A stretch of DNA of 64,000 nucleotides from a bacterium (GTDB taxonomy: Bacteria > Spirochaetota > Leptospiria > Leptospirales > Leptonemataceae). The notes under the pieces are model-generated. The model had not been told where the DNA came from and did not search any database. It saw nothing but the letters and a program-made list of their open reading frames with translations. A program made the translations under genes and the position numbers. Shown in pieces: positions 42,778-56,481 of the stretch (position 1 is its first letter; each line of letters starts with the position of its first letter). The DNA lies in assembly GCA_024742665.1 (NCBI GenBank), contig JANSYA010000001.1, positions 820,425 to 884,424 of the forward strand, in the 5' to 3' direction.

Positions 42778-42823
42778 AAAAACGCGCCGCTTCTGAGTAT
42801 TGATTCAGAAGCGGCGCGTTTTT
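42778..42823. terminator. Strong bidirectional terminator
   Basis: Stem AAAAACGCGCCGCTTCTGA with TCAGAAGCGGCGCGTTTTT (19 bp) around an 8-nt loop, between the TRL pair and the convergent aldolase gene. The T-run after the stem makes it a good Rho-independent terminator for both strands. Confidence 0.9.
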
Positions 42824-42829
42824 CGCTGC

Positions 42830-42850
42830 GCGATATGCGATATGCGATAT
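42830..42850. repeat. Heptamer tandem repeat
   Basis: Three exact copies of GCGATAT right after the terminator and before the aldolase 3' end. Too short to classify. Confidence 0.6.
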
Positions 42851-42915
42851 GCGCGACGTGCTGCTTTCGCATGTCGTCGCGCTTTCATTTGTCGATTGTC
42901 TGCGTTTTTACTCTA

Positions 42916-50009: not shown

Positions 50010-51406
50010 ATCAAACGATCGCCAGTCCATCGCGCGAAATTCCGCGTATTCCCGCTACTTCGCTGCTGCTGGGAAACCTGCGCGAGTTTATCGCCGACCC
50101 CACCGGATTCTTATTGGAGCTCGGAAACGAATACGATGAGATCGTCGAATCGCGCATGTTGATGTACCGTTCGAGTATGCTGGTTCACCCGCAGGCGATC
50201 GAACACGTGCTGCATCGCAATCATACGAACTACGATAAAAACGTATTCGACTATCGCATGTTGAAGCTGCGGCTCCTGGGCAACGGACTGCTGACGAACG
50301 ACGGCGCGGATTGGCTGCGCCAGCGACGCCTCAGTCAGCCGGCCTTCCATCGGAAACGCATGGCGGGCTACGGCCTGGCGATGCGCGATTGCACGCGGCT
50401 GCTGGTTCAGCGCTGGGAACGCGAGGCGGTCGGCGAGGTTCTGGACATTGGCGAAGAGATGGCCGCTCTGACTCTGCAAATCGTGGGGCGGGCGCTCTTT
50501 TCGCGCGATTTGACCGGCGACGCCGACGAGATTGGCGCGGCGCTCGCGGAGGCGAATCATCTGATGACGGAGCGTTTGCTATCGGGCCTTCCTCCGTGGG
50601 TTAATTTTACTCCGCGCGATTTTAAGCTGAAGAAAGCCGCCCGGCGTCTGTGGGCCGTCGTCGATGCGATGATCGCCGAGCGTATGGCCGACGCTTCCTC
50701 CGCCGCGTCCATAAAAGATGCAGGCGATGCGGATGCGCCAGCGGATCTGCTTTCGATGCTCATGAGCGCCCGCGATGAAAGCGGTCAGGCGATGAGCCCC
50801 CGACAGCTGCGCGATGAAATTTTAACGCTGCTCCTGGCCGGCCACGAAACCACCGCGACGGCCCTGACCTGGACCTTTCATCTGCTGGCGCAAAATCCCG
50901 AAGCGCTGCAACATCTGGAACAGGAAGTCGACGTAAGTGTGCGCGACGGCGCGCCCGCTTTCGACGATCTCGCGAAGCTGCCCTACACCCGGATGGCGCT
51001 CGAAGAATCCATGCGTCTGTATCCGCCGGCTTGGTCGATCGCGCGTCGCGCGATCCAGGCAGATACAATCATGGGCTATCGCATTCCAGCCGGCGCGGTC
51101 TTGTATATGAATCCGCTCGTCACTCATCGCCACCGTTCTTTTTGGGACGAGCCGCTTGCGTTTCGCCCGGAACGCTTTTCGCCGGAGAATCGTAAATCGC
51201 AAATGCCCTACGCGTACTTTCCGTTCGGCGGCGGTCCGCGCCTGTGCATCGGTGCCGACTTCGCGCTGGCCGAGATGACGATGATTCTCGCGGGAATCGT
51301 ATCGCGCTTTCGTTTACGTTCGACCCGGGCCGAAGTCAAAATGCAGGGACTCATCACGCTGCGCCCCGTAGACGGCATGCCGATGCGCATCGAGCTGAGA
51401 ACCTGA
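50006..51406 (+). CDS. Cytochrome P450
   Basis: 466 residues from GTG at 50006, which overlaps the LRR stop. It shows the I-helix AGHETTATAL, the K-helix EESMR, the RPERF motif and the heme-binding FGGGPRLCIG with axial Cys414. This is a full-length class with no fused reductase, so it needs separate ferredoxin or flavodoxin. The substrate (fatty acid, sterol or xenobiotic) is unknown. Its coupling to an LRR lipoprotein is odd. Confidence 0.92.
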   Translation: MNQTIASPSREIPRIPATSLLLGNLREFIADPTGFLLELGNEYDEIVESRMLMYRSSMLVHPQAIEHVLHRNHTNYDKNVFDYRMLKLRLLGNGLLTNDGADWLRQRRLSQPAFHRKRMAGYGLAMRDCTRLLVQRWEREAVGEVLDIGEEMAALTLQIVGRALFSRDLTGDADEIGAALAEANHLMTERLLSGLPPWVNFTPRDFKLKKAARRLWAVVDAMIAERMADASSAASIKDAGDADAPADLLSMLMSARDESGQAMSPRQLRDEILTLLLAGHETTATALTWTFHLLAQNPEALQHLEQEVDVSVRDGAPAFDDLAKLPYTRMALEESMRLYPPAWSIARRAIQADTIMGYRIPAGAVLYMNPLVTHRHRSFWDEPLAFRPERFSPENRKSQMPYAYFPFGGGPRLCIGADFALAEMTMILAGIVSRFRLRSTRAEVKMQGLITLRPVDGMPMRIELRT

Positions 51407-51647
51407 TGTGAAATTTCTCGGAGGCCGTTAATTTCGCATTCGACTCGCCCGCTGGTGACCATCCCGGTATCGCCCTGGGCCCACCCAGCGGACCGCGGTC
51501 CCCATAGCTCCGGGAAAATGAGACATAATCTCCTCCAAACGAGCGAATTTTTTCGTAAAATTTTTGCGACAATTCGGCCGTAAAAGAGCTCAGACCATAA
51601 AGTTCATCCACACAATCGTCGATTGCCTTAATGTGGAGGGTACTTCT

Positions 51648-52091
51648 ATGGACACCCTGATCAAAGATGTTTTACACGCAAGCAATGGACAATCTCCGGT
51701 CTCGGAGACTCAAGCGGCGGTAGCGCGAACCGCAAAGGAATTGGCCGGCGCCGCTATCGAAGCGGCGCAGTTGAAGCTGTCGAATGATTCGACGGCGGCC
51801 GATGCCGGCGCGGAACGCCAGGGGCAAAGCTACACGGACGTAGCGGCCACTCCCGAGAATCGACGTCAAATCGAGTCCGCCGTAAAGGCGCTCGAATACG
51901 TGCACCCCGAATTGACCAGTGCGGACTCGCGCTATCAGATTCGTATGCACCAGGAGACGGGCAAGCTGCAGGTCGCGTTAGTCAATACGCAGACCGGCGA
52001 GACCCTGGAAGAAATTCCGGGAACCAAGCTGCTCGAATTCGCGGAAGCGATGTCGGAACTCGGTGGCCTCTTGTTCGAGAAACGCGCCTGA
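51648..52091 (+). CDS. flaG: FlaG-family flagellar protein
   Basis: 147 residues. The C-terminal 70 residues match FlaG: SRYQIRMHQETGKLQVALVNTQTGETLEEIPGTKLLEFAEAMSELGGLLF. A Ser/Ala/Glu-rich N-terminus precedes it. FlaG influences filament length. The ATG at 51648 follows GGAGGG by 7 nt, which decides the start. Confidence 0.85.
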   Translation: MDTLIKDVLHASNGQSPVSETQAAVARTAKELAGAAIEAAQLKLSNDSTAADAGAERQGQSYTDVAATPENRRQIESAVKALEYVHPELTSADSRYQIRMHQETGKLQVALVNTQTGETLEEIPGTKLLEFAEAMSELGGLLFEKRA

Positions 52092-52310
52092 GCCTTTGCC
52101 ATAAGCAAAGGCGAACCCTTTGCCATATGCAAAGGCGAACAGGTTGCCTGTCGCAGACAGGTGACCGCGAAAGTCTTAACTTTGCCATAAGCAAAGGCGA
52201 AAAAGTCGTCTGCCTTCGGGCAGGTGAGGCCGAAGCCATGCCCGCGGCCTGTCGTTGATCGACAGGCGCGAAAGACCGCGCGTTCCCGGTGAAAACCGGG
52301 GCGGGCGGTC
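52092..52310 (+). repeat. Array of seven short hairpins after flaG
   Basis: Noncoding. In order: GCCTTTGC-CATAA-GCAAAGGC (52092-52112), CCTTTGC-CATAT-GCAAAGG (52117-52135), CCTGTC-GCA-GACAGG (52147-52161), CTTTGC-CATAA-GCAAAG (52180-52196), CTGCC-TTCG-GGCAG (52210-52223), GCCTGTCG-TTGAT-CGACAGGC (52247-52267) and a two-part stem GACCGC...GCGGTC enclosing CCCGGT-GAAA-ACCGGG (52274-52310). Two stem families alternate, several followed by GCGAA or CGCGAAAG. The stop of flaG ends just before the first. Confidence 0.7.
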
Positions 52311-52382
52311 GCGTGTATTCTGGAAGCGGTTCTTGCGAAGCCTTCTGCTGTGAAGGAATTGCGCGCTGAGACTGGCCCAAAC

Positions 52383-52955
52383 TCAAGCAGGATCGCGCGG
52401 ACGGCCTCGCCACTCGTCTTCTAAAATCGCCATGCGATACGCATTCCAGTAGTCACGCCCGGTGAAGGTCGTGCCGCGCATGAGCCCTTCTTTGCGAAAG
52501 CCCGCCTTTTCGTAGCAGCGAACGCCGGCCGTGTTGAAATCGTATACGTTGAGTTCGATGCGATGCAGGCGGTACTTTTCGAAACCCTGCTGGAGAATCT
52601 GACCCAGCATCTCGGGTCCGATTCCCTGGCCGCGATAGTCGGGATGCACCACCATTCGCGTTATAAATGCGGATCCTCGTTCCGTAATGTTGTACAGCTC
52701 GGCGTAGGCCAATCGGATTTCGTTTTCTTTCGCAGCCTGGCGCGCGGAGCGGGCGACGGCAATATATGCGCGACGCAGGGGAACCTTCACGTTGAGTCGC
52801 TTCGCATGCGCGGCCAGCTGCGCTGGTGTAAGCGGATGGCGTAGAGTGTTACCGGCCCACTGACGCAGACCATCGGGCGATTCGTTTTTCAGAAACGAAT
52901 ACATCCAGTCCAGATCGCGGGCCGGGTTCAATGGGCGCAGGCGCAGTTGCGTCAT
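52383..52955 (-). CDS. GNAT-family N-acetyltransferase (RimJ/RimL-like)
   Basis: 190 residues. Motif A reads MVVHPDYRGQGIGPEML (Q/R-x2-G-x-G/A acetyl-CoA loop) and the C-terminus has LNVYDFNTAGVRCYEKAGFRKEG, characteristic of protein or small-molecule N-acetyltransferases such as RimJ/RimL/SpeG. Target unknown. It starts 10 bp after the XAC2610-like gene's stop on the same strand. Confidence 0.88.
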   Translation of the reverse strand: MTQLRLRPLNPARDLDWMYSFLKNESPDGLRQWAGNTLRHPLTPAQLAAHAKRLNVKVPLRRAYIAVARSARQAAKENEIRLAYAELYNITERGSAFITRMVVHPDYRGQGIGPEMLGQILQQGFEKYRLHRIELNVYDFNTAGVRCYEKAGFRKEGLMRGTTFTGRDYWNAYRMAILEDEWRGRPRDPA

Positions 52956-54380: not shown

Positions 54381-54412
54381 GATCACGTTTCAAGGAGGAA
54401 ACGCGAATGATC
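54381..54412 (+). promoter_or_regulatory. Start-site hairpin of flaB1 with SD in the loop
   Basis: Inner stem CGTTTC (54386-54391) with GAAACG (54398-54403) around the hexaloop AAGGAG, which is the Shine-Dalgarno. Outer stem GATCA (54381-54385) with TGATC (54408-54412), which includes the TG of the start codon. A GGA-in-loop hairpin over the ribosome site is the form bound by CsrA. Confidence 0.65.
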
Positions 54413-55252
54413 ATCAACAATAACCTCTCCGCGATCAACTCCCATCGGGTGCTGAAATTCCAGCATGCCGAAGTGGACAAAAATATGGAGAAGCTCTCTT
54501 CGGGCATGCGGATTAACCGCGCCGGAGACGATGCGTCCGGTCTGGCCGTGAGCGAAAAAATGCGCTCGCAAATCAACGGTCTGCGCCAGGCGACTCGAAA
54601 TGCCGAAGACGGCATGAGCATGATCCAGACCACTGAGGGATATCTGTCGGAAACCGCCGATGTGCTCCAGCGCATTCGGGTTCTGTCTGTGCAATCCGCG
54701 AACGGTATCTACACCGCTCAGGATCGTCAGATGATTCAGGTGGAAGTATCGCAGCTGATCGACGAAGTCGATCGCATCGCATCGCAAGCGGAGTTCAACC
54801 AACAGAGTCTGCTGCTCGGCGATTTCGCACGCGGTTCGCGGGAATCTTCGATGTGGTTTCACATCGGACCCAATGCGCACCAACGTGAGCGTGTGTTCAT
54901 CGGCACCATGACCGCTCAGTCGCTCGATCTGCGACGCGTGGACGGCTCAATGGTCAGCCTTTCGACGATGGCTCTGGCCAACGACGCGATCGGCACCATC
55001 GACTCGGCCCTGCATCGCTTGAACAAGCAGCGCGCGGATCTGGGAGCCTACTTCAATCGCCTCGAACATGCGGCGCAAGGTCTTATGACCGCGTACGAAA
55101 ACACCCAGGCGTCCGAAAGCCGCATCCGTGATACGGATATGGCCGAAGAATCCGTGGCGTTCACGAAGAACCAGATTCTGGTTCAGAGTGGAACGGCGAT
55201 GCTGGCTCAGGCCAACATCCGTCCTCAGTCTGTACTCCAGCTCTTGAGATAA
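54407..55252 (+). CDS. flaB: Flagellin FlaB, copy 1
   Basis: 281 residues. N-terminal [41 protein letters not shown] and [22 protein letters not shown], and the C-terminal [28 protein letters not shown] are the conserved ends of spirochaete FlaB core filament proteins. No variable outer domain to speak of, as expected for periplasmic filaments. AAGGAGG precedes the ATG; see the start-site hairpin. It is a paralogue of copy 2, 386 bp downstream. Confidence 0.95.
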
Positions 55253-55638: not shown

Positions 55639-56481
55639 ATGATAATCAATCACAACATGAGCGCAGTGAATGCTCACCGTGCTCTAAAGTTCAATCAGTC
55701 GGCAGTGGACAAGTCCATGGCGAATTTGTCGTCCGGTATGCGGATCAACCGCGCCGGGGACGATCCGTCGGGACTGGCGGTGTCGGAAAAGATGCGTACA
55801 CAGGTCCAGGGCCTGCGCCAGGCGGAAAGAAATACTCAGGATGGTTTGAGCATGATTCAAACCACCGAGGGCTTTCTGGCGCAGACGTCGGATATCATTC
55901 AGCGGATCCGCGTTTTAGCGGTTCAATCGTCGAATGGTATTTACAACAATGATGACCGACAGATGATTCAGGTGGAAGTTTCGCAGCTCGTAGACGAAGT
56001 CGATCGAGTGGCATCACAGGCGGAATTCAACCAGTATCAGCTGTTATTGGGTCAATTCGGGCGCAACTCGGCGGTGGCTTCCATGTATTTTCACATGGGG
56101 CCCAACGCGAATCAGCGCGAGCGGGTGTTCATCGGAACGATGACTTCCGCCGCGCTGAAGCTACGAGATGTCGATCGAATGGTCAGTGTTTCGACGCCGG
56201 GACTGTCGAATGATACGATCACGCGGGCCGATGAGGCTCTCTCGATCATCATGAAACAACGTGCGGATCTTGGCGGATACGCGAATCGATTGGAGCATGC
56301 AAGTCGCGGGCTTATGAACGCCTACGAAAACGTGCAGGCTTCTGAATCGCGGATTCGGGACGCGGATATGGCTGAAGAAATGGTCGCGCTGACCACGAAA
56401 CAGATTCTGTCCCAGACATCGATCGCAATGCTCGCGCAAGCGGGAGTGCGTCCGCAGGGGATCTTACATTTGTTGCGATGA
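55639..56481 (+). CDS. flaB: Flagellin FlaB, copy 2
   Basis: 280 residues. [46 protein letters not shown] and [22 protein letters not shown], then [28 protein letters not shown] at the C-terminus. It is closely similar to copy 1. AAGGAG lies about 7 nt before the ATG. It ends before a strong terminator. Confidence 0.95.

What the first reader, a model, noticed from the sequence alone, without database searches (positions are those of the whole stretch)
52092..52310. Array of alternating short hairpins after flaG
Seven consecutive hairpins with two recurring stem types (CTTTGC/GCAAAG three times, CCTGTC/GACAGG twice) and recurrent GCGAA spacers fill 220 bp with no gene. This is not a plain terminator. 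It could stabilise mRNA, bind an RNA-binding protein, or be a small RNA. The loops carry no GGA, so it is not CsrB-like.
Basis: seen in the sequence. Interest (0 to 1): 0.55.

Follow-up and report, generated by a model that had tools for sequence, protein, structure and literature searches.

The report
Hairpin cluster after flagellar gene flaG
A 220-base stretch right behind a flagellar gene is packed with seven or eight small RNA hairpins, most likely a reinforced end-marker and protective cap for the gene's messenger RNA; it is real and striking to look at, but similar hairpin clusters stand behind other genes of this bacterium, and the general kind is already known.

Summary
From the base after the flaG stop codon (52092) to 52310 there are seven main hairpins: CTTTGC/GCAAAG three times, CCTGTC/GACAGG twice, five GCGAA spacers, no GGA on the + strand. 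Dinucleotide shuffles gave at most 3 such stems in 2000 trials (6 observed); the + strand folds at z = -8.4. The order is A-A-B-A-C-B-D, not strictly alternating. The sequence is single-copy, with no match in the viral, phage and plasmid collections and none in Rfam. Its design is not singular: in 1.6 of 6.0 Mb, 10 of 804 gene spaces hold at least four such hairpins, none of them among the 213 divergent spaces; by fold z-score it ranks 12th of 333 gene-end flanks. Behind flaG of 18 relatives I count 0-2 such hairpins against 6, though one relative has four longer ones. Best reading: a hairpin cluster acting in the flaG transcript as a U-tract-poor termination zone and barrier to 3' exonucleases, perhaps also separating flaG from the converging GNAT gene. 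That kind is published (Gupta and Pal 2021). Not a REP element, not CsrB-like; a small RNA is neither supported nor excluded.

The parts
51648..52091 (+). flaG (147 aa), the gene whose transcript would carry the array
   Evidence: Pfam FlaG PF03646, E 2e-12
52092..52112 (+). hairpin A1, GCCTTTGC-CATAA-GCAAAGGC, 8 bp; starts at the base after the stop codon
52117..52135 (+). hairpin A2, CCTTTGC-CATAT-GCAAAGG, 7 bp
52142..52166 (+). hairpin B1, GGTTGCCTGTC-GCA-GACAGGTGACC, 11 pairs in + RNA with two G.U pairs; core 52147-52161
   Evidence: -15.7 kcal/mol on +, -10.8 on -
52180..52196 (+). hairpin A3, CTTTGC-CATAA-GCAAAG, 6 bp
52206..52227 (+). hairpin C, TCGTCTGCC-TTCG-GGCAGGTGA, 9 pairs in + RNA with two G.U pairs; core 52210-52223 with a C(UUCG)G loop on the + strand
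   Evidence: -9.8 kcal/mol on +, -7.8 on -
52228..52237 (+). weak 3-bp hairpin GGC-CGAA-GCC
   Evidence: -2.1 kcal/mol
52247..52267 (+). hairpin B2, GCCTGTCG-TTGAT-CGACAGGC, 8 bp
52274..52310 (+). hairpin D, the largest (15 pairs); apex CCCGGU-GAAA-ACCGGG; no U-tract behind it
   Evidence: -28.9 kcal/mol on +, -22.3 on -
52200..52223 (-). terminator-like site on the - strand, CTGCCCGAAGGCAG ACGACTTTTT (T-run 52204-52200), placed to end the GNAT transcript; candidate only, since 2 such sites were found in 51400-52700 against 1.7 in shuffles
52383..52955 (-). converging gene, GNAT acetyltransferase
   Evidence: Pfam Acetyltransf_1 E 4.6e-15

Best explanation
A 3'-end hairpin cluster of the flaG transcript. 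RNA polymerase leaving flaG makes seven or eight short, stable hairpins in a row, starting directly at the stop codon and ending in a 15-pair hairpin. Together they act as a U-tract-poor termination zone (by themselves or with Rho, which the genome has) and as a barrier to 3' exonucleases, keeping the flaG message intact and separating it from the converging GNAT transcript, which may use hairpin C with its T-run on the other strand. Shown: the hairpins, their non-randomness, position, single-copy state, and the company of similar arrays at other gene ends of this genome. Inferred: transcription through the array, termination, mRNA protection, insulation. The three A copies probably arose by local duplication of one hairpin (inference).
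For: Fold z -8.38 on the + strand, stronger than the - strand (-6.31). Wobble-type mismatches in the extended stems are all G.U in + sense, 4 against 0, two each in B1 and C; B1, C and D are about 5, 2 and 7 kcal/mol more stable as + RNA than as - RNA; + strand loops include C(UUCG)G and GAAA (that these are extra-stable RNA loops is recalled). In the own genome such hairpins are over shuffles 3.2-fold (C9) and 2.5-fold (C18, 8 spaces) in convergent, 2.1-2.3-fold in codirectional, 1.0-1.5-fold in divergent spaces. Spaces with >=3: 9 of 87 convergent, 16 of 504 codirectional, 2 of 213 divergent (Fisher 0.006 convergent against codirectional, 0.0003 against divergent). Spaces with >=4: 10 of 804, about 1.0 in shuffles; in 5 of the 6 codirectional ones the array lies within 25 nt of the upstream gene's stop (one of these genes is a doubtful 41-aa call). 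Few gene-end hairpins have TTTT within 11 nt: 15 of 295 (convergent spaces counted for both genes). Rho is present. One relative (L038) also has four hairpins, of other sequence, in a convergent space behind flaG.
Against: No RNA data. The array is not conserved: 18 family relatives have 0-2 hairpins by the same count in the 225 nt behind flaG. No + strand site of the tested hairpin-plus-T-run kind within the array. The - strand folds strongly too, and the three A hairpins are slightly more stable on the - strand (-12.3, -8.4, -5.6 against -11.4, -7.8, -4.7). Genome-wide signs of RNA-level selection are weak: G.U against A-C 31:26, 19:8 (p 0.05) and 10:5 at stems >=4, 5, 6; stable loops sense against antisense 32:19 (p 0.09), 19:6 (p 0.015) and 13:4 (p 0.049) at stems >=5, 6, 7; uncorrected, and a few arrays supply many of the counts; the three relatives show no significant lean.
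Confidence: 0.55

Rival explanations
1. Neutral by-product: an ordinary end-of-gene hairpin was locally duplicated and palindromes were sharpened by replication template switching; only one hairpin (D) ends transcription and the others do nothing.
For: Identical A stems in a 24-base tandem step plus a displaced copy; some other arrays in the genome are plain tandem repeats, for example five copies of a GTCTCGCG palindrome at C9:375596-375855; the array sequence is in no other genome of the 30 searched.
Against: The B, C and D hairpins are not copies of A; arrays of four or more avoid divergent spaces (0 of 213); G.U pairs in B1 and C fit + RNA only.
Confidence: 0.25
2. A trans-acting small RNA or a platform for an RNA-binding protein made from the flaG 3' region.
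For: Recurrent GCGAA spacers and two recurrent stem types could serve as repeated binding sites.
Against: No sigma-70-like promoter in 51400-52700; sigma-28-like sites in the window were hardly commoner than in shuffles (13 against a mean of 9.75, largest 17); no Rfam match up to E 1 in 51500-52600; not found in 29 other genomes of the order; no GGA on the + strand.
Confidence: 0.12
3. A REP/BIME-type mobile palindrome cluster spread by a RAYT transposase.
For: REPs favour convergent and unidirectional spaces and lie downstream of genes, as these arrays do (PMC3733652, abstract read).
Against: No Y1_Tnp (PF01797) in the genome while 5 of 14 control genomes have it; no dispersed copies of the stem. 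GCAAAGGCGAA occurs 36 times in the genome: three are this array; the 27 others that have a locus all lie within an ORF, 23 of 27 within one of at least 600 bp; 6 places have no locus and were not looked at.
Confidence: 0.03

Closest known systems
Hairpin-cluster intrinsic termination units (Gupta and Pal 2021, Sci Rep, PMC8355165; outline with abstract, passages and the poly-U section seen)
   Same: Several short hairpins less than 15 nt apart, directly downstream of the stop codon, no U-tract required; Leptospira interrogans was among their 13 genomes.
   Different: Seven to eight hairpins with repeated stems and spacers are many (their identified clusters average 3); termination here is not measured; two stems are longer than their 2-10 bp.
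REP/BIME elements (Di Nocera 2013, PMC3733652; abstract seen)
   Same: Short palindromes in clusters at gene ends, favouring convergent and unidirectional spaces.
   Different: Locus-specific stems, single-copy array, no Y1 transposase, no high-copy family.
Bidirectional or tandem terminators between convergent genes (recalled)
   Same: Lies between two converging genes; the - strand reading of hairpin C has a T-run.
   Different: + strand lacks a U-tract; many more hairpins than needed.
CsrB/RsmZ sponge RNAs (recalled)
   Same: Tandem small hairpins with a recurrent spacer motif.
   Different: No GGA in the + strand; no own promoter found by the sigma-70 scan.

Membership tests
Hairpin-cluster termination unit (PMC8355165) | successive hairpins less than 15 nt apart | tested here: met
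   Gaps from the coordinates: 4, 6, 13, 9, 0, 9, 6 nt with B1 and C extended and the weak 3-bp hairpin counted; without the weak hairpin the gap from C to B2 is 19 nt and the cluster would split
Hairpin-cluster termination unit (PMC8355165) | within about 80 nt of the stop codon | tested here: met
   first hairpin starts at the base after TGA
Hairpin-cluster termination unit (PMC8355165) | short stems of 2-10 bp | tested here: inconclusive
   A1, A2, A3, C, B2 and the weak one have 3-9 pairs; B1 has 11 with G.U pairs, D has 15
Hairpin-cluster termination unit (PMC8355165) | RNA-seq coverage drops at the cluster | not testable with these tools
   no expression data for this genome here
Canonical intrinsic terminator | GC-rich hairpin followed by a U-tract, + strand | tested here: not met
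   no + strand site inside the array in the terminator scan; one - strand site at 52223-52200
REP/RAYT element | many dispersed copies | tested here: not met
   exact stem pattern at this locus and at one place inside an ORF only
REP/RAYT element | Y1 tyrosine transposase in the genome | tested here: not met
   PF01797: 0 matches; 5 of 14 control genomes positive. [quoted passage not shown]
CsrB/RsmZ-like sponge | repeated GGA in loops | tested here: not met
   0 GGA on the + strand of 52092-52316
Known structured RNA family | match to an Rfam model | tested here: not met
   0 matches at E <= 1 in 51500-52600

The most novel reading that the evidence does not exclude
This spirochaete lineage (a Leptospirales bacterium) ends a share of its genes with home-made arrays of perfect palindromes, different at each locus but built alike, folding in the sense of the upstream gene (some with GNA, GNRA or UUCG loops), in place of U-tract terminators: a gene-end device assembled anew at each locus, not spread as a repeat family.
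Probability: 0.15. Interest if true: 0.5.

Novelty: new member of a known kind. Interest (0 to 1): 0.25.

Why it matters
It is a clear, extreme natural example of a multi-hairpin gene end without a U-tract. If such arrays end transcripts, terminator predictors that demand a U-tract will miss gene ends here; if they protect messages, they help set the expression of single genes such as flaG. My two paper searches that named Leptospira with termination terms listed no paper on gene ends in Leptospirales by title, apart from Gupta and Pal, who include L. interrogans; only the top 12 of 132 and 8 of 57 papers were listed, so this is no claim of absence.

Tried and rejected
Dispersed repeat: GCAAAGGCGAA occurs 36 times in the genome against 4 for the reversed control, which looked like a repeat family; the 27 places outside the array that have a locus all overlap an ORF of 222-1545 bp, so it looks like coding usage; rejected (6 places not examined). 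Genome-wide excess of hairpins irrespective of location: stems of 6-8 bp are about as common as in one order-2 Markov sequence; most loop lengths show an excess only at 10-12 bp and more. Sigma-28 promoter for flaG (candidates 51598, 51556): not above shuffles to a usable degree. GNA triloops as a signature: 15 sense against 5 antisense at stem >=6, but few independent loci. Mobile origin: no match in viral contigs, phages or plasmids. First genome-contig scan with flaG found no relatives; the second, with flagellin, returned Leptospirales/Spirochaetia records. Lineage-specific excess: spaces with >=4 hairpins are 10 of 804 in the own 1.6 Mb and 4 of 502 in 400 kb each of three relatives (G010 3 of 180, G015 1 of 169, G001 0 of 153), so no difference is shown by this count; strong folds (z < -5) are commoner in the own genome, 35 of 333 flanks against 9 of 248. 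My first view that relatives have only plain one- or two-hairpin ends behind flaG was corrected on recount: with loops up to 12 allowed, the first 225 nt hold 7 hairpins here, 4 in L038 and L050, 3 in L046 and L049, 0-2 in the other 14 of 18; some of these reach into the neighbouring gene. Dropped rows: spaces under 60 bp, over 1200 bp or with N; under 120 bp, over 1500 bp or with N; convergent spaces count twice. Genes were called by my own simple coding-score script, not by a standard caller.

Full report
What is there. The window comes from a 6.03-Mb, 26-contig, 93% complete genome. The closest flagellins to its own among named records, up to 84% identical, belong to records titled Leptospiraceae, Leptospirales or Spirochaetia, so I take it for a Leptospirales bacterium; no other species of its genus is among the held genomes of its family and order. 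FlaG (PF03646) ends at 52091. From 52092 to 52310 run the hairpins A1, A2, B1, A3, C, a weak 3-bp one, B2 and D. A converging GNAT gene ends at 52383. The order A-A-B-A-C-B-D has two A copies in a 24-base tandem step and a third displaced by 62 bases. GCGAA stands at or directly behind the ends of A1, A2, B1, A3 and B2.

Is it more than chance. Yes. Six hairpins with stems of at least 6 bp and loops of 3-6 were counted, against 0-3 in 2000 dinucleotide shuffles. Folding z-scores are -8.38 (+) and -6.31 (-), with none of 200 shuffles as good.

Is it unique. The sequence is, as far as searched: the exact stem pattern CTTTGCNNNNNGCAAAG lies only here and at one place inside an 864-bp ORF; the array DNA has a match in 1 of 30 genomes of the order, its own, in none of the phage or plasmid records, and its A unit in no viral contig. 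The design is not. I fetched 1.6 Mb of the own genome, called genes with a simple script and counted hairpins in 804 spaces of 60-1200 bp. Ten hold at least four hairpins, about 1.0 expected from shuffles. None of the ten is among the 213 divergent spaces; four are among the 87 convergent and six among the 504 codirectional ones, and in 5 of these six the array lies within 25 nt of the stop codon of the upstream gene. Spaces with three or more: 9 of 87, 16 of 504, 2 of 213. Neighbouring genes are of many kinds; by my reading of the printed translations (no family search) they include an RNA polymerase beta' subunit, a LexA-like repressor, acyl-CoA dehydrogenases and a response regulator. By fold z-score the flaG flank is 12th of 333 gene-end flanks of the own genome (30 shuffles each, so roughly). 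So arrays sit where transcripts end, and the flaG array is one of a set.

Relatives. In the 225 nt behind flaG the same strict count gives 6 here and 0-2 in each of 18 family relatives; with loops up to 12 it gives 7 here, 4 in L038 and L050, 3 in L046 and L049, and 0-2 in the other 14. L038 is the nearest thing to a counterpart: flaG there converges on a gene whose product I read as ribosomal protein S4 (no family search), and the 200-bp space holds hairpins of 15, 11, 12 and 9 bp, some with T-runs, of unrelated sequence; the last reaches into that gene. Fold z-scores of the first 200 nt of the 18 run from +2.1 to -7.5, two below -5; the flaG flank of the window scores -6.4 in that test, so L038 folds even better than chance by this measure. 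In 400 kb each of three relatives 4 of 502 spaces have at least four hairpins, against 10 of 804 in the own genome: no clear lineage difference, though strong folds are commoner in the own genome (35 of 333 flanks with z below -5, against 9 of 248).

DNA or RNA. Evidence for action in the + RNA: stem extensions hold four G.U and no A-C pairs, two each in B1 and C; B1, C and D are more stable on + than on -; loops C(UUCG)G and GAAA are on the + strand. Against: A1, A2 and A3 are slightly more stable on the - strand. Genome-wide the same signs lean the same way but are weak: stable loops sense against antisense 32:19, 19:6 and 13:4 at stems >=5, 6, 7 (p 0.09, 0.015, 0.049); G.U against A-C 31:26, 19:8 and 10:5 at stems >=4, 5, 6. 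The relatives show no significant lean.

How it most likely works. As a hairpin-cluster gene end: the nascent RNA folds hairpin after hairpin behind the polymerase, helping release without a U-tract, and the remaining structure blocks 3' exonucleases. Gupta and Pal (PMC8355165; abstract, passages and the poly-U section seen) describe clusters of hairpins less than 15 nt apart close to the stop codon as termination units in 13 genomes, Leptospira interrogans among them, mostly without nearby poly-U. Here T-runs are also rare (15 of 295 gene-end hairpins), canonical terminators with long T-runs do exist in the genome (for example near C9:895050), and Rho is present, so Rho may share the work. 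On the - strand hairpin C is followed by a T-run and could end the GNAT transcript; the scan found about as many sites as shuffles would, so this is only a candidate. Termination, protection and insulation are inferences; nothing here measures RNA.

What it is not. No Rfam match, not REP/RAYT, not CsrB-like by the GGA test. A small RNA lacks support but is not excluded. A neutral origin of at least the A copies by local duplication is likely and does not contradict a function.

Verdict. Observation confirmed; a special regulatory RNA is not supported beyond an mRNA-end function; new member of a known kind, extreme in number of hairpins.

Noticed in passing
L080:246-5505 (own genome C9, about 520.2-525.5 kb): A cluster of 15 tRNA genes on both strands, one read with a four-base anticodon (ctaa), within a 7.5-kb stretch in which my script called no gene and which is also rich in perfect hairpins.
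   Followed up: partly
L072 (own C9:375596-375855): Five tandem copies of a palindrome GTCTCGCG-acca-CGCGAGAC with near-identical spacers fill the space between convergent genes.
   Followed up: no
L121 (own C18:155468-155726) and L080 (own C9:531127-531522): Hairpin arrays whose loops, read in the sense of the upstream gene, are mostly GAA, GCA, GGA or GTAA.
   Followed up: partly
L219 and L225 (G010 C1, near 106.3 and 232.5 kb), L238 (G015 C1, near 98.8 kb): Gene-end hairpins of two different genera share an apex resembling CCACGGATGG inside long stems of otherwise different sequence; may be a conserved loop or an uptake-type word.
   Followed up: no
L038:1765-1965 (relative G009): flaG converges on a gene that reads as ribosomal protein S4 across a 200-bp space with four strong hairpins, two of them T-rich; in the window the partner is a GNAT gene instead.
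   Followed up: partly
window 42778-42915: Convergent space with a near-perfect long hairpin with A-rich and T-rich ends (AAAAACGCGCCGCTTCTGA...), a typical two-way terminator, followed by a second strong structure.
   Followed up: no
window 54407-55252 and 55639-56481: Two tandem flagellin genes downstream on the + strand.
   Followed up: no
L057 (own C9:77786-78005): A long inverted repeat nested around smaller hairpins with TTGAAAAA/TTTTTCAA-type ends, fold z -13, possibly a small mobile element.
   Followed up: no
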